From Lachnospiraceae bacterium (GTDB lineage Bacteria > Bacillota > Clostridia > Lachnospirales > Lachnospiraceae): a DNA stretch of 46,182 nt. Below are positions 2,123-31,861 of the stretch, one piece after another. The position numbers were made by a program, and so were the translations under genes. Location: NCBI GenBank assembly GCA_024691425.1, contig JAILNQ010000124.1, forward strand, positions 1 through 46,182, read 5' to 3'. How positions within the stretch are numbered: position 1 is the first letter of the stretch; each line of letters starts with the position of its first letter. The notes beneath the pieces were generated by a model. It did no database searches. It was not told where the DNA came from and worked only from the letters and a program-made list of their open reading frames with translations.

Positions 2123-2142
2123 CTTCTCTCCATCTATCTGCT

Positions 2143-3152: not shown

Positions 3153-3165
3153 GATCACTCCTCCT

Positions 3166-4572: not shown

Positions 4573-4582
4573 GCTGACACTC

Positions 4583-7185: not shown

Positions 7186-8331
7186 TCATCCCAGAATTTC
7201 ATTTATGGCCCGGGCAACAGTTTCAAGCTCTTCTTCGCTGATCCCGCTGCTGCACGGCAGCGCTATGATCCTCTGCCACAGGCTCTCAGCTATAACAAGG
7301 TCTTCATGCGGAGAATCCTCATAAGGCAGCTGCAGATGGACGGGCTTCCAGAACGTACGCGCTTCTATATCTCTTTCCTTAAGAGCGCTGCATACTTTTT
7401 TTGAATCATCAAGTGTTTTTCCTTCGGGAAGAACTATGCCGCTGAACCAGCAGCTGCTTCCTTCTGTTTCAGGAAAGAATGATATTCCTGAGTTCTTAAG
7501 GCCTGAAAGTTCTTTTTCGTAAAACCGTCTTATGCGCCTTTTTGTCTCGACAAACGTCATTGCCCTTTCCATCTGGGCACATCCGACCGCCGCCTGGATA
7601 TTGGTCATCCTGTAGTTGAATCCCGCTTCGTCAAAATCATAATCAGGCCAGACGCGCGCTGTCGTCGTAAGATGCCTTACATGATCGAGAAGTTCACGGT
7701 TCCTGCCGACAACTGCACCTCCGCCACCGCAGGTCACCGTCTTATTCCCGTTGAAGCTGAGGACGCTGAGGTCAGCAAGCTCGCCGAACGGCTTGCCGTG
7801 ATATGCAGCACCTATAGAGCATGCGGCATCTGCGATCAGAACCAGGCTATATTCTTTAGCGATAGCGTTGAATTTATCCATATCAGGCATGTTGCCGAGC
7901 GTATGGACGGGCATGATCGCCGATACGCGTCTTCCGGTCTTTTTATGTATAAGACCGTCGCCGGATAATTCACACTCACTCTCAATTCCATGCTTTACCG
8001 CATCAGGATCAAGGCACCAGTCATTGTGCCTGATGTCGAAAAGCCACGGGTCGGCGCCGCAATGGCGTACCGAATTGGCTGTTGCTATGAAAGTAAAGGC
8101 AGGGATTATGACAAGATCGTCACGTCCGACTCCGGCAGCAGTAAGCGCCGCATGCAGTCCCGTTGTCCCGGAACTCGTTGCAACCGCGCTGCTGCTTCCT
8201 GTCGCCTTAGCGACAAGCTCCTCAAAGCGGTTAACGTACTCACCTACAGATGATACGAATGTCGAATCTATGCAGTCGATCAGATACTTTTTTTCATTAC
8301 CCGTTAAATTTGGTACTGATAACGGTATCAT
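7186..8331 (-). CDS. legC: LegC-family nucleotide-sugar 4-aminotransferase
   Basis: This 381-residue PLP enzyme should transfer an amino group from glutamate to C4 of an NDP-4-keto-6-deoxy-GlcNAc, an early step towards legionaminic acid. The start MIPLSVPNLTGNEKKYL and the segment DSTFVSSVGEYVNRFE are typical of the LegC family. The PLP-phosphate loop SSGTTGLHAAL, Asp168 (DAACSIGAAYHGK) and the Schiff-base lysine Lys197 in SFNGNKTVTCGGGG are all intact. It follows the 4,6-dehydratase gene by 9 bp, matching the order of the reactions. AGGAATTG precedes the ATG. Family certain; NDP is GDP or UDP. Confidence 0.9.
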   Translation of the reverse strand: MIPLSVPNLTGNEKKYLIDCIDSTFVSSVGEYVNRFEELVAKATGSSSAVATSSGTTGLHAALTAAGVGRDDLVIIPAFTFIATANSVRHCGADPWLFDIRHNDWCLDPDAVKHGIESECELSGDGLIHKKTGRRVSAIMPVHTLGNMPDMDKFNAIAKEYSLVLIADAACSIGAAYHGKPFGELADLSVLSFNGNKTVTCGGGGAVVGRNRELLDHVRHLTTTARVWPDYDFDEAGFNYRMTNIQAAVGCAQMERAMTFVETKRRIRRFYEKELSGLKNSGISFFPETEGSSCWFSGIVLPEGKTLDDSKKVCSALKERDIEARTFWKPVHLQLPYEDSPHEDLVIAESLWQRIIALPCSSGISEEELETVARAINEILG

Positions 8332-8340
8332 ATCAATTCC

Positions 8341-9570
8341 TCACATTTTTCCGTCCAGGCTCTTGCCTGTCTCAATATGTTCAAAGCTCGGGAGATAATC
8401 CTCAATGAGCTTTACTATATCGCCTTTAGAGCATTCCGGCTCAGAAAATGCCGCATTCAGCCTGTCAATAAGCCGAACGGCTTCCTTTCTGTCAGGTGCC
8501 TTTTTTCCGGTGATCACTCCGAGGCTTGCAAAGCGCTCAAAATCTACGGCCTCGCCTTCTATATAGAATTCCTCATAAGGCTTCTCACCGCTCGTGTCCG
8601 AAGGGGCAAAATGAACGGGATAAGGTTTTCCTTCAGTCCATTCGGCGGCTTTTTCTATCGCCTCGGCATCACTTTCACACCTGTAAATGTCATACCCCAT
8701 GGATTTTAAAAGGTCTTCGGCTATTCTGTCAAAAGACGTCATCGAAGCTTCGGCAAGTTTCGGGAAGAATATATTCCTGTTATCCCCGAGCATTGCAGAG
8801 AGCATGCATATCTGCCCCGATTCCTCCGGGCTTACGAAATACCTCTTCACATCCGAGGGAGCCGAAAGAGGCTGGCGCTTTGCGATCCTTTCAAGAAAAC
8901 CGGCCGGCAGCGAGCCGTTGCTGAAGGCAACGTTTGCAAACCTGGCAGTCTTTACCGGAAATGAATCAGAATAAGAGAAAATCAGGTCCTCCATGATCCT
9001 CTTGCTCGCACCCATGATATTCACTGGATTTGCGGCCTTGTCAGTGGATACGCAGAAATAAAGCTCGGGAGGATATTCCTCGAGCAGGTCAAGAAGCGAT
9101 TTCGCATTTATGACGTTGTTACGAAGAAGCGCCTCAACACTGAAAATGTCCTTCTCAGATCTGACATGCTTGTGAGCCGAGAAATTGGCAACGATATCGA
9201 ATCCGCCTCTTTTATCGCCACGTGCATGGCATCTGAACATCCTTGCAAAAGTTACCGATGAATAATCCATCGGATACGGAAGATAAACAGGCGGAACGTG
9301 CGCCGAAAGATCCGTTTCCGAGCGGAGATATCTCGTCAGTTCAGTGAGCGCGTTCTCGTTCGTATCAACTATCACAAGCTCAGACGGATCGAACGGAAGT
9401 ATTGCGCGGATGAACGCGGAGCCTATTGAACCTGCACCGCCTATGACAAGAACGCTCTTATTTTCTATCCTTTCGCGAAGCTTGCCTTCATGATCATTCA
9501 CATCATCGATGAACATGCTTCTTTCGCGCTTTATCACGTATTCATTTATGAAACTGTCCAGATTGAACAT
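8341..9570 (-). CDS. FlaA1/PglF-like NDP-GlcNAc 4,6-dehydratase
   Basis: A 409-residue soluble SDR of the polysaccharide biosynthesis CapD/FlaA1 group, lacking the membrane part of PglF. It has GGAGSIGS (44-51) for NAD binding. The active site reads STDK (175-178) and Met186 in NIMGASK, so the position that is Tyr in FlaA1/PseB is Met, as in PglF. From that I infer simple 4,6-dehydration without C5 epimerisation, which gives the D-sugar needed by LegC. It fills the LegB role in this cluster, although LegB of Campylobacter is from a different SDR branch. GGAGG precedes the ATG. The C-terminal 120 residues are extra to the SDR core. Confidence 0.85.
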   Translation of the reverse strand: MFNLDSFINEYVIKRERSMFIDDVNDHEGKLRERIENKSVLVIGGAGSIGSAFIRAILPFDPSELVIVDTNENALTELTRYLRSETDLSAHVPPVYLPYPMDYSSVTFARMFRCHARGDKRGGFDIVANFSAHKHVRSEKDIFSVEALLRNNVINAKSLLDLLEEYPPELYFCVSTDKAANPVNIMGASKRIMEDLIFSYSDSFPVKTARFANVAFSNGSLPAGFLERIAKRQPLSAPSDVKRYFVSPEESGQICMLSAMLGDNRNIFFPKLAEASMTSFDRIAEDLLKSMGYDIYRCESDAEAIEKAAEWTEGKPYPVHFAPSDTSGEKPYEEFYIEGEAVDFERFASLGVITGKKAPDRKEAVRLIDRLNAAFSEPECSKGDIVKLIEDYLPSFEHIETGKSLDGKM

Positions 9571-9585
9571 TTCTCCTCCGGCTGC

Positions 9586-10263
9586 CTATCTTATAAGAAT
9601 ATTGTCTTTGCTGCTGCTTTTGCTATAGTGATTTTCGGCAAAAGTCAGGTTAGGGGACTGGCCGAACACTATGACATTGTCGGGAACATCCTCATCCTTT
9701 ATGTAGGTGTTCGCCGAGATTATCACATTATTTCCTATGTTCGCGCCGCCGAGTATCTTCGAGTTCGAGAGCATTTTAACATGCGACCCGATCTTCGGAT
9801 AAACAGAGCTGCCGTCTTTGCGGATGTTGCCGCCCACGGTGCACCCCTGGTAAAAGAAAAAGTACTCTCCGTACTCGGCCTTTCCCATGACGCTTCCGAG
9901 CGGATGCTCGCAGAACCATATTTCGGGAAGCTTCACTTCATAAAAAAGCTCCGCGCAGTTGAGCGATTTATTAAGATAATATGCGGCTGACGCCAGATCG
10001 CTTTTTCCATCAAGAAACGAATACCTGCTGATCCAATAGAGGAAAACGCAGTATTCAAGTGAATGCATCGGTCTTACAGCGATCTCTGACTCCCCTGCTC
10101 CGTCACTCTTATTCAGGCGGAATGCGTCGATGCAGCGCTGCGTGTTTCCGATCGCCTTTGCAAATATTGAATCTGACAGCTCCGCGTCCGCGCCGGGTCC
10201 GAAAAAAGTATTCAGCTGATGTCTCAGCATCTGTTCAAGCTTTTTTTCCCATTCAGTGTTCAT
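9586..10263 (-). CDS. Serine-acetyltransferase-like left-handed beta-helix acyltransferase
   Basis: The 225-residue protein has a helical N-terminal half and a hexapeptide-repeat C-terminal half (HPLGSVMGKAEYG, YQGCTVGGN, ILGGANIGNNVIISANTYI) like serine O-acetyltransferase. The His of HPLG is the expected catalytic base. No other cysteine-pathway gene is near. It lies between the 4,6-dehydratase and the amidase and overlaps the latter by ATGA. The best guess is N- or O-acetylation of the 4-amino sugar intermediate (the LegH/PglD step) or of the finished nonulosonate, but LegH is usually PglD-like, so this is an analogue at most. Confidence 0.75.
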   Translation of the reverse strand: MNTEWEKKLEQMLRHQLNTFFGPGADAELSDSIFAKAIGNTQRCIDAFRLNKSDGAGESEIAVRPMHSLEYCVFLYWISRYSFLDGKSDLASAAYYLNKSLNCAELFYEVKLPEIWFCEHPLGSVMGKAEYGEYFFFYQGCTVGGNIRKDGSSVYPKIGSHVKMLSNSKILGGANIGNNVIISANTYIKDEDVPDNVIVFGQSPNLTFAENHYSKSSSKDNILIR

Positions 10264-11021
10264 GACAAGCGAAAATCCTCTGTGAAATCATCAAGGACCG
10301 GAAATTTTCTTCGGTATTTTTCCGTATCATCCGCAAAATCAAACTCTATCGTACCTTCTGTATCGGAGAGCGACTTCAGTATATCCCCGTTCGGGCTTAT
10401 CACGCATGAATCGCCGGAATAGTACTGTCCTCCTACATTTCCCTGGCAGTTTATGGCAAACACATATATCTGATCCTCGATCGCGCGTGCCTTAAGGAGC
10501 GCCTTCCAGTGCTCGCTTCTTGAAGCAGGCCAGCATGCCGGTACAATAACGGCATGGACAGATTCTGCAACAGCGCGGAACACCTCGGGAAACCTTAAGT
10601 CATAGCATATGAACGTCGAAAAAGGAATCCCGCAAAGCGTATAGATATCTATCTTCCGTCCGCTCGAAAACTTCTTATCTTCACCGGAAAACGAAAAGGG
10701 GTGTATCTTCGTATACTCTGAAACAACGGCCCCTGCGGCATCAACTATGGAATAGACATTTTCTGCCTTATCACCTGCGCGCCTTGCCCAGCCAAAACCT
10801 ATTCCCGTACCTTCATTCTTCGCTATATCCATAATACGTCCGAGAGTTTCTTCGCCGTCTTCTGCGGTCACATCCGTATTCATGGAAAAACCGGTGAAGC
10901 TCATTTCAGGGAAAAAGCAGTAATCGCATCCTTTTAAGCTTCTGATGATCTTCTCAGCATTTTCGATATTCTTTTCTTTATCTTCCCATGCCATGCATGT
11001 CTGGGCTAATGCTATTCTCAT
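10260..11021 (-). CDS. Nitrilase-superfamily amidohydrolase (carbon-nitrogen hydrolase)
   Basis: This 253-residue protein has the complete Glu-Lys-Cys triad of the nitrilase superfamily: Glu39 in FPEMSFTGF, Lys105 in YTKIHPFSFSGED and Cys139 in ICYDLRFPE. It resembles small omega-amidase-type enzymes that hydrolyse a carboxamide to acid and ammonia. The known legionaminic pathway has no such step. Its position between the acetyltransferase (ATGA overlap) and the CMP-transferase (7 bp) suggests it works on an amide in the sugar or its precursor, or recycles the keto-acid amide left by the class III aminotransferase reaction. Substrate unknown. Confidence 0.85.
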   Translation of the reverse strand: MRIALAQTCMAWEDKEKNIENAEKIIRSLKGCDYCFFPEMSFTGFSMNTDVTAEDGEETLGRIMDIAKNEGTGIGFGWARRAGDKAENVYSIVDAAGAVVSEYTKIHPFSFSGEDKKFSSGRKIDIYTLCGIPFSTFICYDLRFPEVFRAVAESVHAVIVPACWPASRSEHWKALLKARAIEDQIYVFAINCQGNVGGQYYSGDSCVISPNGDILKSLSDTEGTIEFDFADDTEKYRRKFPVLDDFTEDFRLS

Positions 11022-11028
11022 CGGCTTA

Positions 11029-11757
11029 TTATCCTTCTGATTTCCACTCGCTGAGATCGATCAGTTTATTCGCGACAATGAACCTTGCGAATTCAAGATC
11101 GATCATACTGTCTATCTCTATCGATTTTTCAGCAGGCATAATATACGGAACTGACTTTTCGGAATGGAACAGATGGTTCTTCTTCAGATAGTCCCATTTT
11201 GCCGCATAAATGCAGCCGTTCATGGTATACTCGCTTTCTATATCCTGCCGTCTTGTTGCCGACATTTCCTTTATCTCATGATAAAACTGTGACAGTCCGC
11301 CATTGTCATCAAGCGTGTGGATGAAATGTCTGCTGACCTCAACCTCTTTCATTCCGAGCATCGTATCGGAATCTGTTCTGATCATAAGATCAAGCGCATT
11401 GTTCAGATCGGTTGCGCTAAGGAACGGCGATGAAGGCTCAAGCAGACAGAGAATGTCATACTCCGACTCATCATTTGCCTCTATCCATTCCATCGCATGG
11501 TCGATGACGTCCATGCTCGATGCAGTATCCGTTGCCAGATGGGCAGGCCGCATGAACGGCACTTCGGCGCCGTAGCTTCTGGCAACTTCGGCTATCTTCT
11601 CATCATCGGTAGATACGATAAGCCTATAGTCGTATCTGCATTTCATTGTCGGTATGATCTTGTACGCTATGAGAGGAAGGGCTCCTAGCTGAATGATGTT
11701 TTTTCCGGGAACTCCCTTTGAACCGCCCCTGGCAGTTATCACAAACAGGATCTTCAT
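11029..11757 (-). CDS. legF: CMP-nonulosonate synthetase (LegF/NeuA type)
   Basis: A 242-residue cytidylyltransferase with the signature ITARGGSKGVPGKNI at residues 7-21, followed by STDDEKIAEVARSYGAEVPF and LEPSSPFLSATDL. It should activate an 8- or 9-carbon ulosonic acid with CTP, the last soluble step before transfer. The second cytidylyltransferase at 31033-31794 is much more divergent, so this one is the better partner for the synthase at 17746. It starts 6 bp after the aminotransferase gene with no clear ribosome site, so coupled translation is likely. The exact sugar is not decidable from the sequence. Confidence 0.88.
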   Translation of the reverse strand: MKILFVITARGGSKGVPGKNIIQLGALPLIAYKIIPTMKCRYDYRLIVSTDDEKIAEVARSYGAEVPFMRPAHLATDTASSMDVIDHAMEWIEANDESEYDILCLLEPSSPFLSATDLNNALDLMIRTDSDTMLGMKEVEVSRHFIHTLDDNGGLSQFYHEIKEMSATRRQDIESEYTMNGCIYAAKWDYLKKNHLFHSEKSVPYIMPAEKSIEIDSMIDLEFARFIVANKLIDLSEWKSEG

Positions 11758-11763
11758 GTTATA

Positions 11764-13065
11764 TCAGTTAAACTTTCTGAAAACAGGCTTTATGACATTG
11801 CCTGTTATAAAATCTTCAACATTTCCGTTAAGTGCATCGGTCATTACTTTTGCAGCCGACCTTACGGCATCCAATGTATAGTCTATTTCAGCATCCTTAT
11901 GCTCATAGGCGATAGCTATGCAGGGCATGAGAACTCCTTTATTGAGAAGCTCCTGCAAGAACACGGTCCTGTACTCCATCGAAGGCTTCTTGTCCTTTCC
12001 GCATATCACGAGGTTCGGCGAACACTCTGCCCCTGTCGTGTATATATAGTCGGAAAGGCCGGATTCCTTTGCTATCTCAGCTATTCCGCTGCAAAGCTTC
12101 TTACCCATTTTCCATATCTGGTCCGTAACGCCGAGTTCCTTATACACCTTGACGGTCTCGATGAAAGCTCCGAGTCCGCTCATTTCCGCACCGTGAGTCG
12201 TAGATATGAGGAACACGCGCTCCTTGCCGGGTGTGAGTCCGCCGAGATCCATGATCTCTCTCTTTCCGCCGAGGGCCGTTACTGAAAATCCGTTTGCCAT
12301 TCCTTTGCCATAGGTGACAAGATCGGGCTCGACTCCATAGTACTTGCAGGCTCCCTGAATATCCCACCGAAAACCTGTGATCATTTCATCGAGAATATAT
12401 ACAGTTCCGTTCTCCTTGCAAAGTTTACCGACTTCCTGCAGGAAATTGTTCTCGGGCTCTTCCGACTCCGAAGGCTCCATTATAAGGCAAGCGATCTCGC
12501 CTTTATGCTCCTCGAACATCTTCTTTACTGACTCAATATCGTTATAGTGAAAATCGATCGTCAGGTTCCTGATCTCCTGCGGGATTCCGCAGTTCATCAC
12601 GGTATCGCCGATGAACCAGTCATCATATGAGAAGAAAGAATGCTCTAAGCACCTTGCTATGTATTTCCTTCCGGTATAAGCCCTTGCAAGCTTTGTTGCC
12701 GCAGTCGTGACTGTTGAGCCGTTCTTTGCGAACTTGACCATATCTATCCAGGGAATGAGATCAACTAATGTCTCGGCCGCATCAACTTCTACCTTTGAAG
12801 CTTTTGTTGCGGTATTTCCGTTTCTTATCTGTGCAATGGCCGCATCAGATATACGCTCAAATCCGTATCCTACCGTGACTGAGCGGCAGGCCATGCCGTA
12901 ATCAAGAAATTTATTGCCGTCAACATCCCATGCATAAACGCCTTTAGTATGATCGATCACCCTAGGGGCGTTTCCCGGGAACGTCTCATCAGTCCTGCTG
13001 TACGTATGTGCGCCTGCAGGGATAAGATCATGTGCTTTCTTTCCGTAAATCTCATTCTGTGTCAT
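11764..13065 (-). CDS. Class III aminotransferase, glutamate-1-semialdehyde-aminomutase-like
   Basis: A 433-residue fold-I PLP enzyme resembling HemL. Visible features are DVDGNKFLDYGMA, the phosphate loop KNGSTVTTAATKLARAYTGR, Asp226 in ILDEMITGFR and Lys254 in TYGKGMANGF. No other haem gene is nearby and the position inside the nonulosonate block speaks against a haem role. Homologues of this type occur in several sugar clusters; here it may aminate a keto or aldehyde carbon in the side chain of the nonulosonate. GAGGAG precedes the ATG. An aminomutase reaction is also possible. Confidence 0.85.
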   Translation of the reverse strand: MTQNEIYGKKAHDLIPAGAHTYSRTDETFPGNAPRVIDHTKGVYAWDVDGNKFLDYGMACRSVTVGYGFERISDAAIAQIRNGNTATKASKVEVDAAETLVDLIPWIDMVKFAKNGSTVTTAATKLARAYTGRKYIARCLEHSFFSYDDWFIGDTVMNCGIPQEIRNLTIDFHYNDIESVKKMFEEHKGEIACLIMEPSESEEPENNFLQEVGKLCKENGTVYILDEMITGFRWDIQGACKYYGVEPDLVTYGKGMANGFSVTALGGKREIMDLGGLTPGKERVFLISTTHGAEMSGLGAFIETVKVYKELGVTDQIWKMGKKLCSGIAEIAKESGLSDYIYTTGAECSPNLVICGKDKKPSMEYRTVFLQELLNKGVLMPCIAIAYEHKDAEIDYTLDAVRSAAKVMTDALNGNVEDFITGNVIKPVFRKFN

Positions 13066-13089
13066 TTTTTCTCCTCATCCTTTCTTCCA

Positions 13090-14073
13090 TCAGGAATTCT
13101 GATGCTCTATCGCATCTATTATCGATAATATCTTTCTGTCGGCTTCAAATGTATGCCTTGCCTTAGTTTCCCCATTTATCACGGACATGAACTCTGTGAT
13201 CTCCGACAGGTATGCATCCTCTATGATCGATGCGCTGTAACCGGAAAGCTTGTCAACGCTTTCATACAGCTCAATTTTCACATCCTCTTTCTTATCCGGA
13301 TCGTATTCGCACAGTCCGTAAGGCGTTCCGTCCCATGAAATGTACAGATCTTCCGACATGCACTCAAAGTTTCTTACGGCCTTTCTCGAAACAACATCAA
13401 ACTGGATAAGTCCCATGGTACCGCCCTCATGCGATATCATTATCTGAAAGCTGTCCGGGTATCCGATTTCGAGAGACGTTGTTTTCTTCTTCTGAACTTC
13501 CCAGTGTTCGGGAAGACCGAAAACATCGAAAATCCACGGGAATTCAATGGCCATAATTTCCCTGCATCCGTTCGTCCTCGCATCACCTACGAAAAAGTTT
13601 CTGTAGTTCTCCCAGGGATGCCAGTCGGGAAGATACTGCCCTACATGGTAAACGTAGCTGATCCCTGCCTTGCTTTTTGTTACAGCCTTTTTAATGTACT
13701 CTATCTCCTTACGGTACATCGGCGTCGATGACAGGAAGAGGACAAGACCTTTTTCTTTCGCCAGAGCGATGTTTTCATCATATCCGTTTTCAACGAGGTT
13801 TATCTCAGTAAAAACATGAAGCCCTTTTTTCAGGCACTCATTTATTATAGCAGAGTGCGACAAGGGCGATGTGGAAACAAACGCCGCATCAGGACAGACA
13901 GAGCATGCCCCGTCGATATCTTCAAATGTCTCTATTCCGAACTCATCCTTTGCCTGCTTCTGCCGCTCTGGCATTTTGTCGACTCCGACAAGCTCTATGC
14001 TTTCATCATATGCGCGAAGCAGCCTCAGCCTTCTGCGTCCCATGGAGCCGAGTCCGACCACCATTACTTTCAT
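13090..14073 (-). CDS. Gfo/Idh/MocA-family oxidoreductase
   Basis: This 327-residue protein has an N-terminal Rossmann domain (MVVGLGSMGRRRLRLLR) and the C-terminal beta-sheet domain of the Gfo/Idh/MocA group. The usual EKP substrate loop reads EINL (about residues 93-96), so the common catalytic lysine is replaced by Asn. The fold still suggests NAD(P)-dependent oxidation or reduction of a sugar carbon, but the altered loop may mean an unusual substrate or a non-redox role. The start overlaps the LegG stop by ATGA; AGGAG is five to six bases before the ATG. It could supply the keto group used by the adjacent class III aminotransferase. Confidence 0.82.
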   Translation of the reverse strand: MKVMVVGLGSMGRRRLRLLRAYDESIELVGVDKMPERQKQAKDEFGIETFEDIDGACSVCPDAAFVSTSPLSHSAIINECLKKGLHVFTEINLVENGYDENIALAKEKGLVLFLSSTPMYRKEIEYIKKAVTKSKAGISYVYHVGQYLPDWHPWENYRNFFVGDARTNGCREIMAIEFPWIFDVFGLPEHWEVQKKKTTSLEIGYPDSFQIMISHEGGTMGLIQFDVVSRKAVRNFECMSEDLYISWDGTPYGLCEYDPDKKEDVKIELYESVDKLSGYSASIIEDAYLSEITEFMSVINGETKARHTFEADRKILSIIDAIEHQNS

Positions 14074-15221
14074 CTGCTCTCCTTTATGTCGTAAAAACCC
14101 TTTTTCAGCGAAATGCCGTCTGAGAGCGACTGCTTGATGATCTTTACGATAGCTTCTGCCGCATGTCCGTCACCGTAAATATCTGACTGTCTATGCTCCG
14201 TAGCAAGTGCCTTCGCCATAGCCTGTCCGATCGCTTCACGCCCAGACTCGCAGCTTATCACGGTTTCAGCCATGATACGTCCCTTCTGCCTGTCGCCTAT
14301 ATTGACTGAAGGAGTTCCGAGAACCGGTGCTTCAAGTATCCCGCTCGAGCTGTTGCCGAGCACAAAAGCTGCATGCCTTACAGAGCTCAAATACCTTTTC
14401 ATCCCGAGATTGTGAATGAACACAGCATTTTCACACCCATCGGCAAAGCCTGTAAGCATCTGATTTGCCGTATTTCCTCCTGCATCGGCATTCGCGCCCG
14501 TGATGACAAAGAAAATATCATCTCTTAGTTTCATGGCAGCGCACAGTTCATCTATCTGATCACTGACAGTATCGTCTTCCATAGTGACCGGATGGAATGT
14601 TACGACCGCATATTTTCCCCCTGATGGTATTCCGATATCCGCTCTTACCTCATCACCACTCATAAGCTCCTGCGTTCTTATATTATCAACGCTGAGCGCA
14701 CCGACAGAAAATACGCGGTCCGGTGACTCGCCGAGCTGGATCACCCTTTTTCTGTAGGCAGACGTCGAAGTAAAATGGAGAATGCTCATCTTCGTAATGG
14801 CATGCCTTATGCAGTCATCCACTGCCCCGAAAGTCACTTCACCGCCATGGATATGGGCTATCGGTATCCTCTCATTAAGTGCGGCTGCCGCAACGGAAAG
14901 CATCTCTGTGCGGTCTCCGAGTATCACTGCGATATCCGGTCTGTCCTCTGAAAAGCATTTTGCGAATCCCTTCATGGCATTTGCCATTGTTGCAGAGATT
15001 CCATAAGGTCCGTTGTCTTCGTCAAGGATCGGAACTGTATGTGCTATCTCATATCCGTCGGCTCTTATCGCATCAAGAGTATGCCCGTGTTTTTCTGAAA
15101 GGTGCGTGCCTGTGACTATCAGATCAAGATCAAGCTCTTCATCATCTGCCACCGTTCTGATAAGAGGGAACAGCTGCCCGTATTCCGCACGTGTTGCCGT
15201 GATAATGGCTATTCTCTTCAT
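14070..15221 (-). CDS. legG: Hydrolysing NDP-sugar 2-epimerase (LegG/NeuC type)
   Basis: A 383-residue GT-B-fold enzyme that hydrolyses NDP and inverts C2 to give a free ManNAc-type sugar for the synthase. Family marks are the N-terminal IITATRAEYGQLFPLI, the LILGDR-like segment IAVILGDRTEML, HIHGGEVTFGAVDD, and near the end LGNSSSGILEAP, GTPSVNIGDRQKGR. The family includes both the sialic-acid (NeuC) and legionaminic (LegG) enzymes; the presence of LegC and the 4,6-dehydratase argues for the LegG role. It overlaps both neighbours by ATGA. Confidence 0.9.
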   Translation of the reverse strand: MKRIAIITATRAEYGQLFPLIRTVADDEELDLDLIVTGTHLSEKHGHTLDAIRADGYEIAHTVPILDEDNGPYGISATMANAMKGFAKCFSEDRPDIAVILGDRTEMLSVAAAALNERIPIAHIHGGEVTFGAVDDCIRHAITKMSILHFTSTSAYRKRVIQLGESPDRVFSVGALSVDNIRTQELMSGDEVRADIGIPSGGKYAVVTFHPVTMEDDTVSDQIDELCAAMKLRDDIFFVITGANADAGGNTANQMLTGFADGCENAVFIHNLGMKRYLSSVRHAAFVLGNSSSGILEAPVLGTPSVNIGDRQKGRIMAETVISCESGREAIGQAMAKALATEHRQSDIYGDGHAAEAIVKIIKQSLSDGISLKKGFYDIKESR

Positions 15222-16066
15222 GATTCTTTCCGTTTCTTAAGATAACGGTCCCATTTACCTGTATCAAGAAAGAACTGTGACCTTTTTCCGCTGCTGATCT
15301 TGACGATCTTTGTATTGCCATCGCCGTACCGCTTGCATATCTCCTCGGCCAGCTGCAGATAGCTCATGTTCTTGTCACCAACATTATAAATACCAGAAAG
15401 GGAAGTGTCTACAAGCGCGAAAACGGCTGCTTCGCAAGCCTTTTCCACGGGAATGAAGCAGCTTATACGCTCACCGTCCCCATATACTTCTATCTTGTTG
15501 TCCCTTCTGACAGACTCTATCATCATCGGAATGATCCTGTCAGTCCTCATTCCATCGCCGTACACCTGCGCCATCCTGAGATGGACTATCCTGACCGTTT
15601 CCGAAAGCGCATTGTCTATCATGTTCTCTGAGGCGAACTTGGAAAGTCCATAGAAGAATTCGGCATTTCCTGACATTCTTATTTCGGATGTTTCATCATA
15701 AGTTCCGTCTTCATTCGGATACACCGCTATCGACGAAAAATTGACTATTGTTCCGACGCCGAGCTCTTTGGCGATCCTTATGACGTTCCTTGTCATCCTG
15801 ATGTTGTCTTCAAAAACCGAAAACTGCTCATCATATGACATCCCGGCCGAAACAAGTCTTGCCGCGGCATGAACTATAGCATCGATTCCATCATCTTTAT
15901 GCGCATCAAGAAATTCATCTACGGACCGATCGCTGATAAGATCAAGCGATTCTGCAATGCCGTCGCCGATGTGCCTTGATGTTGCCAGGACCGAATGATC
16001 CTTTTCAAGAAATTTTTTAAGATGGGTACCGACGAAACCTCCCGCCCCGGTGATCAGAACTCTCAT
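15218..16066 (-). CDS. NAD-dependent epimerase/dehydratase (extended SDR)
   Basis: The 282-residue protein has GAGGFVG (7-13) for nucleotide binding, SSIAVY (111-116), and the catalytic pair Tyr139 and Lys143 in YGLSK. It is a complete extended SDR like GalE or RmlD relatives. It is not one of the core legionaminic steps. Its place between LegG and the ATP-grasp ligase, with ATGA overlaps on both sides, suggests epimerisation or reduction of the nonulosonate precursor or of the moiety that is added. It is not a close match to the other SDRs in the window, so it is not a recent duplicate. Confidence 0.8.
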   Translation of the reverse strand: MRVLITGAGGFVGTHLKKFLEKDHSVLATSRHIGDGIAESLDLISDRSVDEFLDAHKDDGIDAIVHAAARLVSAGMSYDEQFSVFEDNIRMTRNVIRIAKELGVGTIVNFSSIAVYPNEDGTYDETSEIRMSGNAEFFYGLSKFASENMIDNALSETVRIVHLRMAQVYGDGMRTDRIIPMMIESVRRDNKIEVYGDGERISCFIPVEKACEAAVFALVDTSLSGIYNVGDKNMSYLQLAEEICKRYGDGNTKIVKISSGKRSQFFLDTGKWDRYLKKRKES

Positions 16067-17046
16067 GATTCCACCAGCCTCTCATCATAGAAACGGTAGA
16101 TCCTGCCGGGCTTCGGCGCAAGGTCTGGCACATCCCATCCGAGTGCGCGGCTTATCACGTATTCAACTTCGTTATATCCGAAAAGAGCTCTCATGTAGGT
16201 CGTGCCGGAAAACCTCGGATTTATCTCGAAAAGATAAGGATCTCCTTCAGAATCGCATCTCAGCTGCAGATTGCAGCTTCCGAAAGGTGTGAGCGCGTCT
16301 CCTATCTTTCTTATATAGCTTACTATTTTCTCCTCGGTATTGCCGCAAAACTCTGCAAAAGCCGTATTTCCTTCTTTCAGCGTCCTTCTTAAGATTATGC
16401 TGTCAGCGTACTTGCCATTCCAGTAGAGAATTCCGCAGGTATATTCTGATTTCATCGTTCCGATGGCCTTCTGTATGATGAATCCCTGCCCCGAAAGCGC
16501 ATCTTTCCTGTTCCTCAGAGTATCTGTATCTTTTATCAGCTCAACGCCCCTGCTTCTTGCGCCGTTTCTCGGCTTGATAATGCATGGCAGGAAAATCTCT
16601 TCTTTGTTCCATTCATCGAGCAGTATCGTATCGGGAGCATTGATCCCGTTTTCTTTAAGAAACTGATATGTCAGATACTTGTCGTTTCCTGTCTCAATGA
16701 CCTTCCGGTCAGAAACGATCACCATGCATCCGAACCGTTCGTACAGATCCTCTTTTATATCTGCGAAGTAAAGAAGCTCGAAATCCACGCCGATGAAAAC
16801 AACCTTAATGTTCTCCTTCTCGACGATCTCGTATATTTTAGCTTTCCAGTTTTCTTCCTCTTCGGCCTTTAAAAGATCCGGCAGAAGGTGATTGCTCTCG
16901 CACCAGAAAGAGCCGACAGTATCCGGAAAATAGTCGCATCCGATAAGTCTTACCCGGTCGGCTATTCCGCTTTTATTTATTGATTTTATGACCGCCTGAC
17001 CGATGAGCGATCCGGTCCCGGTTATGAGAATATTCGTCTTATCCAA
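16063..17046 (-). CDS. ATP-grasp ligase (carbamoyl-phosphate-synthase large-subunit-like)
   Basis: A 327-residue ATP-grasp enzyme that should form an amide or thioester from a carboxylate and ATP. The N-terminal Rossmann-like preATP domain starts TNILITGTGSLIGQAVI; Lys158 lies in PCIIKPRNGARSRG; and the metal-binding pair Glu274 and Asn276 is in YLFEINPRFSGT. There is no ATG near the domain start. I assign a TTG at 17046 because AGGAG sits eight bases before it. The gene overlaps the PHP gene by 8 nt. It may join an amino acid or acyl group to the sugar, or activate a carboxylate of the precursor. Confidence 0.82.
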   Translation of the reverse strand: MDKTNILITGTGSLIGQAVIKSINKSGIADRVRLIGCDYFPDTVGSFWCESNHLLPDLLKAEEEENWKAKIYEIVEKENIKVVFIGVDFELLYFADIKEDLYERFGCMVIVSDRKVIETGNDKYLTYQFLKENGINAPDTILLDEWNKEEIFLPCIIKPRNGARSRGVELIKDTDTLRNRKDALSGQGFIIQKAIGTMKSEYTCGILYWNGKYADSIILRRTLKEGNTAFAEFCGNTEEKIVSYIRKIGDALTPFGSCNLQLRCDSEGDPYLFEINPRFSGTTYMRALFGYNEVEYVISRALGWDVPDLAPKPGRIYRFYDERLVES

Positions 17047-17749
17047 TTATGAAACTCCTGTCGCAGATTTCTTCTGTATCGTGAGCATCAGATCCGGCAG
17101 AAACGTAAGGGTCATATTTTTCCAGCAGCTCCTTGATCTGTCTCTCATACTTTCCGTGGTATTTGTAGTTGTATTCGAATGCCACACCGCAAGCGCTGCA
17201 CTGCCTGATGACCGCTTCAAAATAATCTTCGGGAAACTTCCCGTAAGCGCTTATCGTCATTCCGCCGCAGTGACCGAGCACATTTACCGTTCCATCATCG
17301 GCACTCCTTCTTATTGCGGCAAGGGCAAGATCGCGCTCTGTAGCGGCAAGCAGATCATAATCCAGCTCACGGGGCTTAACGAAAGTACCGTTCATCGGGA
17401 TCCTGTGGACGCTTGCTATTACTATATCCGCCGAGCGGGCCGCATCTTCAGGAATATCGATTTCGCCATCCATATTCATGATCTTCGCTTCAAAGCCTGA
17501 AAAGACTGCAATCCCTGCAGTTTCACGCCAAGCGCTGATCTCCTTCAGATACTCCGGGTAATAATCTGATTCCTTCCGGATGTGATCCGTAACGGCTATC
17601 GCTAAAAGGCCGTTTTCTTCAGCGGTACTTATCATCTCAGATACGCATCTTGCACCGTCAGTCCACGTTGTATGCATATGCATATCCATGCGTGAATTAT
17701 CCGGTGTAAGCTCTGACATTCTTAAGAATATATCCGATGCTTTCCTCAT
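17039..17749 (-). CDS. PHP-domain metal-dependent hydrolase
   Basis: A 236-residue single-domain PHP protein with the complete metal-binding series: D22-H24-H26 in DMHMHTTWTDG, VTDHI, SGFEAKI, ASVHR, LGHCGG and AGSDAHD. Such proteins bind up to three metal ions and usually hydrolyse phosphate esters, as in histidinol phosphatase. In this position it may remove the 9-phosphate or a related phosphate from a nonulosonate intermediate, or act on an activated group made by the ATP-grasp ligase. The start overlaps the synthase stop by ATGA. Fold certain, substrate unknown. Confidence 0.85.
   Translation of the reverse strand: MRKASDIFLRMSELTPDNSRMDMHMHTTWTDGARCVSEMISTAEENGLLAIAVTDHIRKESDYYPEYLKEISAWRETAGIAVFSGFEAKIMNMDGEIDIPEDAARSADIVIASVHRIPMNGTFVKPRELDYDLLAATERDLALAAIRRSADDGTVNVLGHCGGMTISAYGKFPEDYFEAVIRQCSACGVAFEYNYKYHGKYERQIKELLEKYDPYVSAGSDAHDTEEICDRSFIIG
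17054..17059 (-). promoter_or_regulatory. Ribosome binding site fixing the TTG start of the ATP-grasp gene
   Basis: On the minus strand AGGAGT lies eight bases before the TTG at 17046 and inside the 3' end of the PHP gene. No ATG is available between this site and the conserved Rossmann start of the ATP-grasp protein, so the site supports a rare TTG start with 8-nt gene overlap. Confidence 0.6.
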
Positions 17750-18738
17750 AGCTCGATCAACTCATCCTCGCAAAAATCCCTTGCCGCCCTTTTCCCGATC
17801 ACCTCGTTCCATCTCATCGGGCTTATCCCGTATCCCGGGCGTTTTGTCGTAATATTATCTTCCGAAAACTCCTCCCCCGCTTTTATAGGACGTGCGGCAA
17901 CGATGCTCTTTCTTGCAGCTGCGCGGTTTCCGATCTCGGATTCTGACGGCGCCTTTATTCCGTTTCCGAGCGCGAGCTCAATGTTCCTGATCGATCTCAC
18001 CATTGCTGCAAGTTCATGCGGCTCGAGGCTTGCTTTATGGTCCGGACCTTCCATTGTCCTGTCAAGAGTGAAATGCTTCTCAATGATCTGTGCTCCCATA
18101 GCAACAGCCGCGATATCAACCTCGATTCCCGGTGTATGGTCAGAATAGCCGACTCTGACTTTGAATTTTTCCCTCAGAGTATTCATGGCCTTCAGATTGA
18201 CGTCACTGTACGGTGTCGGATACTGCGTGTTGCAGTGAAGAAGACTGATATCCGGGCATCCGTTCTGCCGCAGAAGATCAATAGCCGCACCGATTTCATC
18301 CATATCGCACATGCCCGTGGACATCACGACAGGTTTTGCTGTCTTCGCGATTTTTACCAGATATGGGTAGTTCGTGACCTCTCCTGACGGAATCTTCCAG
18401 AAAGGTGTTCCGAGCCCGTCAAGGAATTCAACGGATTCTAAGTCGAACGGGGTGGAAAGGAATCCTATCCCGCAGGAATCGCAGTATTTTTTTATTGCAA
18501 CGAAATCATCAAAATCCAGAAGCAGCTTTCTTACCATATCAAGCTGGCTCTCATCGGAACCGGTGGTTTCCTTCTGATACTGGGCTTTCTCTGCAAATCT
18601 CGAAATAACCTTTTCCGCGCGTGCCGTCTGGAATTTGACTATGTCAGCTCCTGCGGCCTTTGCGGCATCTACCATTTTTATAGCAGTATCATAATCACCG
18701 TTATGATTGACTCCTGCTTCAGCTATTATCAGCGTCAT
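17746..18738 (-). CDS. legI: Nonulosonate synthase (LegI/NeuB type)
   Basis: The 330-residue enzyme condenses phosphoenolpyruvate with a free six-carbon amino sugar to give a nine-carbon ulosonic acid. Signatures: IIAEAGVNHNGD at the start, IVKFQTAR, FLSTPFDLESVEFL, KIPSGEVTNYPYL, LLHCNTQYPTP, VGYSDHTPG, EKHFTLDRTMEGPDH, and a C-terminal SAF domain ending KRPGYGISPM. An upstream TTG would add seven residues, but the ATG at 18738 starts at the conserved N-terminus and has GAGG upstream. It is the only synthase in the window, so it defines the sugar class. Legionaminic versus N-acetylneuraminic acid rests on the neighbouring LegC and dehydratase. Confidence 0.92.
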   Translation of the reverse strand: MTLIIAEAGVNHNGDYDTAIKMVDAAKAAGADIVKFQTARAEKVISRFAEKAQYQKETTGSDESQLDMVRKLLLDFDDFVAIKKYCDSCGIGFLSTPFDLESVEFLDGLGTPFWKIPSGEVTNYPYLVKIAKTAKPVVMSTGMCDMDEIGAAIDLLRQNGCPDISLLHCNTQYPTPYSDVNLKAMNTLREKFKVRVGYSDHTPGIEVDIAAVAMGAQIIEKHFTLDRTMEGPDHKASLEPHELAAMVRSIRNIELALGNGIKAPSESEIGNRAAARKSIVAARPIKAGEEFSEDNITTKRPGYGISPMRWNEVIGKRAARDFCEDELIEL

Positions 18739-18751
18739 CTTCCATCTAACC

Positions 18752-19855
18752 TCATTCAACGAATCCGGCGTTTATTCTCTCTTCCATCCGCTTCATTTCC
18801 GCGAATTCTCCCATATCAAGGAAGGCATTCTCACCGATCGGATACATTCCCACACGCCTTCCTTCGCTCATCATGAGCTCGGCAAGCTCGGTCATGTGGA
18901 ATATTTTTCCCTTAGGTATAAGCTTTATGAACTCAGGATTCAGTACATACATTCCCGTATTGATGAAATGGGAAAGCTCCGGCTTTTCTTCCATGGATGT
19001 TATTATGCCGTTTTCTTTTGCATAAAGAACACCGTAAGGGATCACAGTATTTTTCAGCGAAGATACTATCGTGAGGTCGTTCCCGGATTCAATATGGTAC
19101 TTCAGAACATCTTCATAATCTGCTTCAATGAGGATATCGCAGTTGGTAATGATGACCGGTCTGTCGAATTTCTCCTTTATGAGTCTTATGCTGCCGGCCG
19201 TACCGAGCGGCTTATCCTCTTCAACGAATTCTATCGTATATCCGTGGGGAGCTTCAGAAAAGTATGATTTTATCATTTCCTTGCGGTAATTGACCGTCAT
19301 GTAGAATCTGTCGGCTCCGTACCTCGCAAAACGGTTGAGAATCCGTTCAACTATCGGAATATCCCCGACCGGTATGAGCGGCTTAGGCAGGATTTTCGTA
19401 TACGGATAAAGCCTGGTTCCCTTTCCGCCCGCCATTACTATTACCGGCGTATCCTTCAGCGAACTGCTTCTTACACCTTTCGTTTCAGCGTTTGAAAAGA
19501 CAACGTCCGTGATATGCATTTTAGAATCAACCACAGCGACGGACTCGATCTTGCGCTCAGCCATGACGGCCGCAGCTTCAGTCCTCGCCGGTTCCGCAAC
19601 ATATACCGGATCAGTGTTCATCGCCTTCTTTACGTTCGCGTTGATCCTTCCGCCGTTTATGATCCATCTGCGGATATCTCCGTCCGTAACGCAGCCGACC
19701 AGCATATCCTCGTCATTTACGACATATACGAGTCCGCGGGCGTTCGCGCCGATCTTCTTCATCGCATCAAGTATTGTTGCGCTGCTGCTGCACTTGAAAG
19801 CATCTGTTCTGTTTTTATTCTTGTCAGAAATCAATCCGTTTCCCTCTGGCTTCAT
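18752..19855 (-). CDS. ptmE: CBS-domain sugar-1-phosphate nucleotidyltransferase (PtmE-like)
   Basis: A 367-residue fusion: two CBS motifs (about 20-125) precede a nucleotidyltransferase domain starting VIVMAGGKGTRLYPYTKILPKPLIP (GGKGTR at 143-148). This architecture is that of Campylobacter PtmE, the glucosamine-1-P guanylyltransferase that commits sugar to the GDP-linked legionaminic pathway. CBS pairs often bind adenine nucleotides, so allosteric control of pathway entry is plausible. The ATG immediately follows the TAA of the upstream gene and has no clear ribosome site, which suggests reinitiation. GDP versus UDP specificity cannot be proved from sequence. Confidence 0.85.
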   Translation of the reverse strand: MKPEGNGLISDKNKNRTDAFKCSSSATILDAMKKIGANARGLVYVVNDEDMLVGCVTDGDIRRWIINGGRINANVKKAMNTDPVYVAEPARTEAAAVMAERKIESVAVVDSKMHITDVVFSNAETKGVRSSSLKDTPVIVMAGGKGTRLYPYTKILPKPLIPVGDIPIVERILNRFARYGADRFYMTVNYRKEMIKSYFSEAPHGYTIEFVEEDKPLGTAGSIRLIKEKFDRPVIITNCDILIEADYEDVLKYHIESGNDLTIVSSLKNTVIPYGVLYAKENGIITSMEEKPELSHFINTGMYVLNPEFIKLIPKGKIFHMTELAELMMSEGRRVGMYPIGENAFLDMGEFAEMKRMEERINAGFVE

Positions 19856-23060: not shown

Positions 23061-23705
23061 TCAGTCTATTTTCTTAAGCGCGCATCTGACCGGACATCCG
23101 TCCAGTCCTTTTATTGCAAGCGGCATGCAGAAGAACTCATATTCCCCTTCATCCGCATCTTTCAGCGCAAGCCCCTCAACGATCAGAACCCCGTTTTTAA
23201 GAAGGCTTAAATGCACTGATTTTCCAGGTGTTCTCCTGCTCCGCGGACGCTCAATGGTCAGGTAGTCGATCCCGGCCATTTTGATCCCTTTTTCGGCAAG
23301 ATAATCCGCTGCGTCATACGTCAGCGTCACATGATCATCAAGTATCCTGTCACAGTTCCATGAAAGTGAATTATCCGTGCGGAAAAGTACTATGTCACCT
23401 TTCCCGATCGGCAGTTTCTCAAGCATTTCCCTGCTTATCTCACTATGTCCCGTAACATCCGCAACTATTGCTCTTCCGTTCATCCGGTCGAGAGGCAGCT
23501 GATCTATGCTTTCTCCTCCGGATATGAAATGAAGCGGAGCGTCCATATGAGTCCCGGTATGCGAGCCCATAGTAATGCAGGAAACATTTGCCTTCCCGCC
23601 TTTTTCAATGTCAGAGGTACGTATAGCCGTAAATCCGGGGTTCCCGGGATATATGGCCATCTCCGGCGTCATCTGATAGCTTATATCGATAAATCTGTCA
23701 TGCAT
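23061..23705 (-). CDS. Cyclase-family (kynurenine-formamidase-like) metal hydrolase
   Basis: This 214-residue protein has the family signature HTGTHMDAPLHF at residues 49-60, the metal site of the cyclase/kynurenine formamidase family, and D..H..I in the remaining part. These enzymes hydrolyse amides, formamides or lactones. Two starts are possible: ATG at 23726 and ATG at 23705. The later one begins right before the conserved first strand, has GGAG nine bases upstream and overlaps the epimerase gene by 8 nt, so I prefer it. In this module it might open a sugar lactone or remove a formyl group. Confidence 0.82.
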   Translation of the reverse strand: MHDRFIDISYQMTPEMAIYPGNPGFTAIRTSDIEKGGKANVSCITMGSHTGTHMDAPLHFISGGESIDQLPLDRMNGRAIVADVTGHSEISREMLEKLPIGKGDIVLFRTDNSLSWNCDRILDDHVTLTYDAADYLAEKGIKMAGIDYLTIERPRSRRTPGKSVHLSLLKNGVLIVEGLALKDADEGEYEFFCMPLAIKGLDGCPVRCALKKID

Positions 23706-26131: not shown

Positions 26132-26134
26132 TTA

Positions 26135-27682: not shown

Positions 27683-27686
27683 AATC

Positions 27687-28268: not shown

Positions 28269-28269
28269 G

Positions 28270-29106: not shown

Positions 29107-29119
29107 TTTCCACGTCCTA

Positions 29120-30037: not shown

Positions 30038-30048
30038 GATTTTCTCCC

Positions 30049-31026: not shown

Positions 31027-31032
31027 ATGCGT

Positions 31033-31794: not shown

Positions 31795-31828
31795 ATCTAC
31801 CTTCCTTTCTCTTTCCACATAGACATTT

Positions 31829-31858: not shown

Positions 31859-31861
31859 ATT

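What the first reader, a model, noticed from the sequence alone, without database searches (positions are those of the whole stretch)
7186..19855. Legionaminic-type pathway carrying six extra enzymes: a candidate new nonulosonic acid
Core steps are all present (PtmE-like, 4,6-dehydratase, LegC, acetyltransferase, LegG, LegI, LegF). Interleaved are a PHP hydrolase, ATP-grasp ligase, SDR, Gfo/Idh oxidoreductase, class III aminotransferase and nitrilase, most of them joined by ATGA overlaps. The known legionaminic pathway does not need these. I infer a nonulosonate that is further oxidised, aminated and amidated.
Basis: partly seen in the sequence, partly recalled or inferred. Interest (0 to 1): 0.78.

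Follow-up and report, generated by a model that had tools for sequence, protein, structure and literature searches.

The report
Modular genes for triamino sialic-like sugar
A bacterium of the Lachnospiraceae kind carries a legionaminic-acid (sialic-acid-like sugar) gene block with two extra tailoring modules, one that probably swaps a hydroxyl for an amino group and one that probably adds an acyl group, which would give a more heavily aminated surface sugar than the usual one.

Summary
The 13-gene block is real: all genes lie on the minus strand at the stated coordinates, with a complete legionaminic-type core by homology. The six extra genes form two modules that assort independently.

Module A is a Gfo/Idh oxidoreductase, a class III aminotransferase and, usually, a nitrilase-fold amidase. 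Its aminotransferase clade shares a locus with NeuB in 13 of 13 loci. In 9 other NeuB loci the same oxidoreductase is paired with a second Gfo/Idh enzyme and never with the aminotransferase. I read this as a partner switch after one oxidation: reduction gives an epimer, transamination an amine. C8 is likeliest, giving a 5,7,8-triamino nonulosonate.

Module B (PHP, ATP-grasp, SDR) occurs with module A in three loci, and without it in a flagellin island with no acetyltransferase among its sugar genes (L184). It probably attaches an acyl group.

An 8-amino nonulosonate is known from Flexibacter maritimus (PMC3210612); I found no genes described for one. The chemistry is inferred. Against it: the oxidoreductase lacks the usual catalytic lysine, and aminotransferase relatives also occur in loci without NeuB.

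The parts
18752..19855 (-). PtmE-like CBS-nucleotidyltransferase (core)
   Evidence: Pfam NTP_transferase and CBS over cut-off
17746..18759 (-). LegI / NeuB-family nonulosonate synthase (core)
   Evidence: TIGR03569 501 bits, cut-off 399.65
17039..17749 (-). Module B: PHP-domain metal hydrolase, YcdX-like
   Evidence: Pfam PHP; nearest solved relative by sequence YcdX 1m65
16063..17046 (-). Module B: ATP-grasp ligase, PRK12767 type
   Evidence: NF009402 261 bits, cut-off 218; Pfam ATP-grasp_3
15218..16066 (-). Module B: extended SDR (NAD-dependent epimerase/reductase)
   Evidence: Pfam Epimerase 112.6 bits
14070..15221 (-). LegG / NeuC-family hydrolysing 2-epimerase (core)
   Evidence: TIGR03568 421.8 bits, cut-off 235.9
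13090..14073 (-). Module A: Gfo1, Gfo/Idh-family oxidoreductase, proposed to make the keto-nonulosonate
   Evidence: Pfam PF01408; model pLDDT 89.7, folds GenD2, GnnA and WlbA among the best 50 matches
11764..13065 (-). Module A: class III aminotransferase of the glutamate-1-semialdehyde aminomutase type (AT3), proposed to aminate the ketone
   Evidence: NF004856 609 bits, cut-off 486; the presumed PLP lysine (recalled) is kept in 22 of 22 aligned rows
11029..11757 (-). LegF, CMP-nonulosonate synthetase (core)
   Evidence: Pfam CTP_transf_3; PseF model 171.7 bits, under cut-off 205.7
10260..11021 (-). Module A: nitrilase-superfamily amidase (Nit), proposed omega-amidase
   Evidence: Pfam CN_hydrolase; best NCBIfam PRK10438 142.7 bits, under cut-off 249
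9586..10263 (-). hexapeptide N-acetyltransferase, LegH role (core)
   Evidence: Pfam Hexapep
8341..9570 (-). nucleotide-sugar 4,6-dehydratase, LegB role but not the LegB family (core)
   Evidence: Pfam Polysacc_synt_2 120.6 bits
7186..8331 (-). LegC-type aminotransferase (core)
   Evidence: TIGR04181 413.6 bits, cut-off 420; Pfam DegT
19856..21091 (-). unknown protein, paralogue of 5896-7164; possible sugar transferase, not shown
   Evidence: no Pfam or NCBIfam match; homologue in L033; model too poor to search
5896..7164 (-). unknown protein, paralogue of 19856-21091
   Evidence: no Pfam or NCBIfam match; 24% identical to 19856-21091

Best explanation
The block makes a legionaminic-type 5,7-diamino nonulosonate and then tailors it. 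Shown from sequence: the core enzymes, two separable extra modules and their linkage. Inferred: Gfo1 oxidises a free hydroxyl of legionaminate or CMP-legionaminate. Besides the anomeric one only the C4 and C8 hydroxyls are free, and both carbons become accessible only after the NeuB-type condensation. AT3 then transaminates the ketone, most likely at C8, to give a 5,7,8-triamino-3,5,7,8,9-pentadeoxy nonulosonate. Nit probably hydrolyses 2-oxoglutaramate if AT3 uses glutamine, which would make the amination irreversible. Module B (PHP, ATP-grasp, SDR) probably builds or attaches an acyl or aminoacyl group on one of the amines. In loci where Gfo3 replaces AT3, the same ketone would be re-reduced to an epimer.
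For: AT3, Gfo1/Gfo2 and Nit co-occur: Gfo1 in 10 of 12, Gfo2 in 9 of 12 and Nit in 9 of 12 near AT3 loci, against Gfo2 0 of 59 and Nit 0 of 59 AT3-less NeuB loci. In the loci examined Gfo1 occurs with AT3 (10) or Gfo3 (9), never both and never neither. Partner changes need 3 steps on the Gfo1 tree, at least 2 forced by supported branches. The AT3 clade is NeuB-linked in 13 of 13 loci. Of 17 more distant AT3 loci (L041-L057), 9 hold an SpsF-type cytidylyltransferase and 12 an SDR or AKR of the tested kinds somewhere in the fetched stretch (domains). These are the domains of EpaA and EpaB, which convert pseudaminic acid to its C8 epimer (PMC12053666, passages). The best folds for the Gfo1 model include GenD2, GnnA and WlbA. 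GenD2 oxidises a sugar hydroxyl for transamination by GenS2 (PMC4340712, passages). An 8-amino nonulosonate is published (PMC3210612, passages). An ATP-grasp gene is needed for the terminal peptidylamido-sugar of C. difficile flagellin glycan (PMC5207246, passages). L184 carries module B in a flagellin island, and no ORF between its LegB and LegF genes is an acetyltransferase.
Against: The lysine of the Gfo/Idh EKP motif is absent in 18 of 18 Gfo1 rows and in 9 of 9 readable Gfo2 rows, so their catalysis is not canonical. PmdC, a solved dehydrogenase of the fold, has EIPL there, so the lack is not fatal. AT3 relatives at about 40-46% identity sit in exopolysaccharide-type loci with no NeuB match; 14 of 38 AT3 rows have none in the fetched stretch, some of them short. 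On the Gfo1 tree the two partner labels are also more clustered than chance (3 changes, shuffled mean 6.2), so the swaps are few. Two of 12 near AT3 loci lack Gfo1, and three lack Nit, in the fetched stretch. Nit falls under the YafV-family cut-off. Position C8, the glutamine donor and the module B substrate rest on analogy. No metabolite data exist.
Confidence: 0.52

Rival explanations
1. Gfo1 and AT3 aminate C4 rather than C8 of the nonulosonate, giving a 4-amino sugar.
For: C4 is the other free hydroxyl once the core has run (pathway knowledge), and a C4 epimer of legionaminic acid exists in nature (PMC5595891, passage).
Against: The only amino nonulosonate of this kind that I found in print carries the amine at C8, and EpaA/EpaB-type partners act at C8.
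Confidence: 0.15
2. Module A makes an amino acid or hydroxy-acid substituent, or a separate amino sugar of the same glycan, rather than acting on the nonulosonate itself.
For: AT3 relatives occur in CDP-sugar exopolysaccharide-type loci without a NeuB match. The operon upstream of the block holds other sugar genes.
Against: The near AT3 clade is NeuB-linked in 13 of 13 loci. Gfo1 was always found with AT3 or Gfo3, and a CMP synthetase homologue is near in the loci examined; but all loci examined were picked by NeuB or AT3, so this is not an unbiased test.
Confidence: 0.2
3. The extra genes are passengers or make minor decorations, and the main product is plain Leg5Ac7Ac.
For: The core is complete by itself, and most of the 60 other NeuB loci fetched from the family lack these genes.
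Against: Extra and core genes are interleaved, with 4-base overlaps at 5 of 12 junctions. Both modules recur in other genera in new gene orders.
Confidence: 0.13

Closest known systems
Campylobacter legionaminic acid pathway (PtmE, LegB, LegC, LegH, LegG, LegI, LegF)
   Same: All seven steps have a counterpart in the block.
   Different: The dehydratase is not of the LegB family, the acetyltransferase is a serine-acetyltransferase-like hexapeptide protein, and six tailoring genes are interleaved.
Acinetobacter EpaA/EpaB (8-epipseudaminic acid) and Ela/Aci modules
   Same: Redox tailoring of a nonulosonate by genes added to a core set. EpaAB acts at C8 (PMC12053666, passages; PMC5595891; PMC9676051).
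   Different: EpaAB gives an epimer and uses an AKR and an SDR domain. Here the redox enzyme is Gfo/Idh and an aminotransferase follows it.
GenD2/GenS2 of gentamicin biosynthesis
   Same: A Gfo/Idh-fold sugar dehydrogenase paired with an aminotransferase turns OH into NH2 (PMC4340712, passages; fold match).
   Different: Different substrate, only 16-17% identity to GenD2, and the aminotransferase is not shown to be of the AT3 family.
8-amino nonulosonate of Flexibacter maritimus O-polysaccharide
   Same: This is the predicted product type, with nitrogen at C5, C7 and C8 (PMC3210612, passages).
   Different: A structure only. I found no biosynthetic genes for it, and the configuration may differ.
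Leg5Ac7NMeGlu flagellin glycan of proteolytic Clostridium botulinum
   Same: A legionaminic acid carrying an amino-acid amide (PMC2674064, passages), as module B might make.
   Different: The genes for the amide were not identified in the passages seen, and no third amine is reported there.

Membership tests
legionaminic acid biosynthesis | NeuB/LegI-type synthase | tested here: met
   TIGR03569 501.4 bits, cut-off 399.65
legionaminic acid biosynthesis | NeuC/LegG-type hydrolysing epimerase | tested here: met
   TIGR03568 421.8 bits, cut-off 235.9
legionaminic acid biosynthesis | LegB equivalog (TIGR04180) as 4,6-dehydratase | tested here: not met
   the 409-aa dehydratase does not match TIGR04180; the SDR of module B matches at 41.8 bits, cut-off 475. 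A dehydratase of another family is present, so I file the block as legionaminic-type, not as the Campylobacter pathway
legionaminic acid biosynthesis | LegC aminotransferase equivalog | tested here: inconclusive
   TIGR04181 413.6 bits, cut-off 420
legionaminic acid biosynthesis | product is Leg5Ac7Ac or a derivative | not testable with these tools
   needs mass spectrometry or NMR
PRK06209 class III aminotransferase | score over the curated cut-off | tested here: met
   NF004856 609.2 bits, cut-off 486
Gfo/Idh/MocA sugar dehydrogenase | NAD-binding domain and overall fold | tested here: met
   PF01408 49.1 bits, cut-off 24; fold matches from E 5.7e-18
Gfo/Idh/MocA sugar dehydrogenase | EKP catalytic lysine (motif recalled) | tested here: not met
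   EINL or ELNL in 18 of 18 Gfo1 rows; EKP present in 9 of 9 Gfo3 rows
YafV-type omega-amidase | score over the curated cut-off | tested here: not met
   PRK10438 142.7 bits, cut-off 249
YafV-type omega-amidase | nitrilase Glu-Lys-Cys residues (recalled) | tested here: met
   present at the aligned places in 10 of 10 Nit rows
EpaA/EpaB C8 epimerase | cytidylyltransferase-AKR fusion plus adh_short_C2 SDR | tested here: not met
   no such fusion or SDR inside the 13-gene block; it may work like it, but is not a member

The most novel reading that the evidence does not exclude
A switchable tailoring system for bacterial nonulosonates. One oxidoreductase makes a C8-keto (CMP-)legionaminate. A swappable neighbour then decides its fate: Gfo3 gives the 8-epimer, AT3 with an omega-amidase ratchet gives the 8-amine. 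A separately moving PHP/ATP-grasp/SDR module adds an acyl or aminoacyl cap. In this organism the product would be an N-acylated 5,7,8-triamino nonulosonic acid that my paper searches did not turn up.
Probability: 0.42. Interest if true: 0.72.

Novelty: new variant of a known kind. Interest (0 to 1): 0.6.

Why it matters
It would give a first candidate gene set for 8-amino nonulosonic acids, whose structure has been known without genes as far as my searches show. It would also show that nonulosonate diversity is built by swapping single partner enzymes after a common oxidation, so products could be predicted from genomes. An extra amine changes the charge of a sugar class that normally carries a negative charge to the cell surface. 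Named strains, not only MAGs, carry the aminotransferase loci (Eubacterium ruminantium ATCC 17233 and Roseburia sp. 1XD42-69 by record title), so the claim can be tested now.

Tried and rejected
Rejected: (1) 'All six extra genes travel together'. L184 has B without A, and nine near AT3 loci show no B in the fetched stretch; the ATP-grasp protein was also absent (E up to 1e-20) from the whole genomes behind those nine loci. My own interim view that B never occurs without AT3 (note) was overturned by L184. (2) 'Gfo1 works only with AT3'. It is paired with Gfo3 in 9 loci. (3) Amination at the nucleotide-hexose stage, as with GnnA/GnnB or WlbA. The future C8 is the ring-oxygen carbon (C5) of the hexopyranose and C4 is its anomeric carbon, so neither could be aminated there (reasoning from pathway knowledge).

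Led nowhere: the structure model of 19856-21091 (mean pLDDT 48.2) was too poor to search. A phage search with an AKR neighbour found nothing. The paper search for Kdo8N/KdnA/KdnB listed mostly kinetoplast DNA papers; the Shewanella enzymes are therefore recalled, and only the sugar is mentioned in PMC3210612. A search for a Tenacibaculum O-antigen gene paper listed none.

Limits: loci L031-L040 were fetched by AT3 similarity, so the Fisher values are descriptive, and the score limits in that table are mine. Several loci are cut by contig ends (L035, L039; among the NeuB-anchored ones L120, L131, L144, L155 and L170 are under 8 kb), so absences there are weak. L126 was left out of the Gfo1 tree because my ORF picker missed its Gfo1, although tblastn finds it. 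The L032 Gfo2 ORF is short (233 aa). L055 is placed uncertainly. Flagellin in L184 and L186 and FlaG in L184 were recognised by eye. That PF01973 covers Maf proteins is recalled. Of the papers opened I saw only abstracts and passages found by term, no whole text.
Full report
Observation. The thirteen ORFs lie at 7186-19855 on the minus strand. Domain searches give, in transcription order: PtmE-like nucleotidyltransferase, LegI, PHP, ATP-grasp, SDR, LegG, Gfo/Idh, class III aminotransferase (AT3), LegF, nitrilase-fold amidase (Nit), hexapeptide acetyltransferase, 4,6-dehydratase, LegC. Five of 12 junctions are exact 4-base overlaps, two overlap by 8 bases if the TTG starts hold, and five are gaps of 6 to 24 bases. 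The dehydratase is not the LegB equivalog. The window is contig G000:C68 of an assembly rated 83.8% complete. A genome of the same genus, G015, holds the contig of L033, whose title names a Lachnospiraceae bacterium.

Homologous blocks. A scan of one genome per species with AT3 found 139 relatives and kept 80 loci, ten of them at 75-93% identity (L031-L040), with titles naming Lachnospiraceae, Roseburia, Eubacterium, Anaerovibrio and a Spirochaetales MAG. All ten carry a LegI homologue. L033 is collinear with the window, with all 13 genes in the same order. AT3 at E up to 1e-100 is rare: 2 of 392 genomes of the order, the window's own included. The PRK06209 family cut-off is passed in 3 of 99 genomes, own included.

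Survey anchored on NeuB. A search of 299 family genomes with TIGR03569 found matches in 118. I fetched 60 of the listed places: all 38 over the cut-off other than the window's own, and 22 under it. Only one (L136, G325:C39, another genus) has AT3, and it also has Nit, PHP, ATP-grasp, SDR and a Gfo2. Of the 59 AT3-less loci, 0 have Nit, 0 PHP, 0 ATP-grasp, 0 SDR and 0 Gfo2 at my score limits, while 9 have Gfo1 and the same 9 have Gfo3. In the 12 near AT3 loci (window, L031-L040, L136) the counts are Gfo1 10, Gfo2 9, Nit 9, module B 3, Gfo3 0. The AT3 loci were picked by AT3 and some stretches are short, so these are counts, not a fair sample.

Partner switch. In all 9 AT3-less loci with Gfo1 a second Gfo/Idh protein of about 313 aa (Gfo3) is present: next to Gfo1 in 8, and one gene away (across LegF) in L114. 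Gfo1, Gfo2 and Gfo3 separate on a tree: Gfo1 and Gfo3 each fall on one side of a fully supported branch, and Gfo2 needs two changes because of one uncertain archaeal row. On the Gfo1 tree (18 Gfo1 rows; L126 left out) the partners change 3 times, at least 2 forced by supported branches; the labels are also more clustered than shuffled ones (mean 6.2). A few independent swaps are what one expects if Gfo1 performs a common step and the partner decides the outcome. All three share a YLPDW-like motif with few departures. Gfo3 keeps the EKP lysine in 9 of 9 rows, and Gfo1 lacks it in 18 of 18.

AT3. The window's AT3 sits in a supported clade of 13 (including Silvanigrella, L041), all with a NeuB homologue in the locus. 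More distant relatives split. Those in Pelagibacterales, Ignavibacteria, Gemmatimonadota and some Bacteroidota loci are NeuB-linked. Those on Agrobacterium, Sinorhizobium, Streptomyces, Tsukamurella and Qingshengfaniella plasmids show no NeuB match within 6-8 kb; four of those five records are annotated, and I read them as exopolysaccharide-type loci. In all, 24 of 38 rows are NeuB-linked. Of the 17 loci L041-L057, 9 hold an SpsF-type cytidylyltransferase and 12 an SDR of the adh_short_C2 kind or an aldo-keto reductase in the fetched stretch, next to AT3 in some and kilobases away in others. EpaA is a cytidylyltransferase-AKR fusion and EpaB an adh_short_C2 SDR, and together they convert pseudaminic acid to its C8 epimer (PMC12053666, passages).

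Why C8, and why after the synthase. Carbons 4-9 of the product come from the hexose. The future C8 is the hexose C5, whose oxygen is in the ring, and the future C4 is the anomeric carbon. Oxidation and amination there must follow condensation by LegI (pathway knowledge). Acinetobacter work proposes CMP-Leg5Ac7Ac as the precursor of the epimers (PMC5595891, passages). A nonulosonate with nitrogen at 5, 7 and 8 is published from Flexibacter maritimus (PMC3210612, passages).

Enzymology by analogy. The Gfo1 model is good (mean pLDDT 89.7), and Foldseek ranks GenD2 first, with GnnA, WlbA and PmdC among the best 50. GenD2 and GenS2, with the methyltransferase GenN, were shown in vitro to oxidise and transaminate a sugar carbon (PMC4340712, passages). 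The fold family is broad and identities are 11-19%, so this is support for type only. Solved relatives of AT3 are glutamate-1-semialdehyde aminomutases first and include C-6' aminotransferases (the aminoglycoside context is recalled). Nit has the nitrilase residues in 10 of 10 rows but is not a YafV equivalog. Its link to AT3 within the NeuB loci examined fits a glutamine transaminase / omega-amidase pair of the kind reviewed in PMC6302742 (passages).

Module B. The ATP-grasp protein (E up to 1e-60) is in 2 of 397 family genomes, own and G325, and at E up to 1e-50 in 1 of 398 genomes of the phylum sample, the own one. Of 16 genomes behind AT3 loci, 1 (that of L033) has it at E up to 1e-20. PHP (E up to 1e-22) is in 4 of 373 genomes of the order: own, G325, G531 and G602. 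G531 (L184) shows flagellin (by eye), a PF01973 protein (Maf, recalled), DUF2920, LegB, LegC, PtmE, PHP, ATP-grasp, SDR, LegI, LegG, LegF, FliD, FliS, with no AT3, Gfo1 or Nit match; every ORF of 110 aa or more between LegB and LegF is assigned and none is an acetyltransferase, while six flanking ORFs were not domain-searched. So module B works in a legionaminic flagellin island by itself and could supply the N-acyl group. In G602 (L185), PHP and ATP-grasp come one gene after a DegT aminotransferase, with no NeuB match in the stretch. A PHP / ATP-grasp / oxidoreductase run also exists on Sinorhizobium meliloti pSymB. An ATP-grasp gene is required for the terminal peptidylamido-sugar of C. difficile type B flagellin glycan (PMC5207246, passages; structure PMC5207245, passages).

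Where the sugar goes. The own genome has three flagellin N-terminal matches on other contigs. The G325 block lies on a contig with a flagellin-like ORF (L186, by eye). Flagellin is a reasonable target but is not shown for the window organism, whose contig otherwise holds mostly polysaccharide-type genes.

What is in print. Searches of the open library for legionaminic plus ATP-grasp (both papers opened for passages), for nonulosonic with 8-amino or pentadeoxy (one listed, 1 opened), for glutamate-1-semialdehyde with nonulosonate terms (30 of 177 listed) and for legionaminic plus Gfo (one listed, not opened) showed no paper that describes this gene set. One search did find Legionella pneumophila serogroup 6/12 tables listing a glutamate-1-semialdehyde aminomutase between PseG and an acylneuraminate cytidylyltransferase, without interpretation in the passages seen (PMC3694923). 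Most subscription papers are not covered.

Verdict. The block is best called a legionaminic-type pathway with two independent tailoring modules. The product is a prediction.

Noticed in passing
L184:1688-17622: Flagellin (by eye), Maf-type protein, DUF2920, then a legionaminic set with PHP/ATP-grasp/SDR and no acetyltransferase between LegB and LegF, then FliD and FliS: a compact flagellin glycosylation island with a possible ligase in place of LegH.
   Followed up: partly
L182:9261-11931: PHP, ATP-grasp and an NAD(P)-dependent oxidoreductase in a row on Sinorhizobium meliloti pSymB, next to cysD/nodQ/cysQ sulfate-activation genes and without a NeuB match in the stretch.
   Followed up: no
window 5896-7164 and 19856-21091: Two paralogous proteins without any family match flank the 13-gene block, and both have homologues in L033 in the same places; possible nonulosonate transferases.
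   Followed up: partly
window 23061-33505: A second sugar-like module upstream: another CTP_transf_3 protein (31033-31818), a radical SAM/SPASM protein, epimerases, a 2-hydroxyacid dehydrogenase, a HAD, a cyclase-family protein (PF04199) and an adh_short_C2 SDR.
   Followed up: partly
window 917-5884: Downstream of the block: DUF4910/DUF2172 protein, AMP-binding ligase, an Antibiotic_NAT-domain protein far under the AAC(3) cut-offs, and a methyltransferase. DUF4910 also accompanies distant AT3 genes in several unrelated loci.
   Followed up: no
G000:C98 (L169) and G000:C83 (L170): Two further NeuB-family genes in the same genome, below the TIGR03569 cut-off, so the organism may make more than one nonulosonate.
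   Followed up: no
L118:6322-8283 and eight other family loci: A paired Gfo1 plus Gfo3 set near a CMP-sugar synthetase in AT3-less NeuB loci; candidate two-enzyme epimerase for nonulosonates.
   Followed up: partly
L173, L174, L176: A recurring set in Agrobacterium, Streptomyces and Tsukamurella plasmids: SAM methyltransferase, glucose-1-phosphate cytidylyltransferase, PIG-L deacetylase, NAD(P)-dependent or SDR oxidoreductase, an rfbC-type epimerase and an AT3 relative (plus DUF4910 in L173 and L174), perhaps for an aminated branched CDP-sugar.
   Followed up: no
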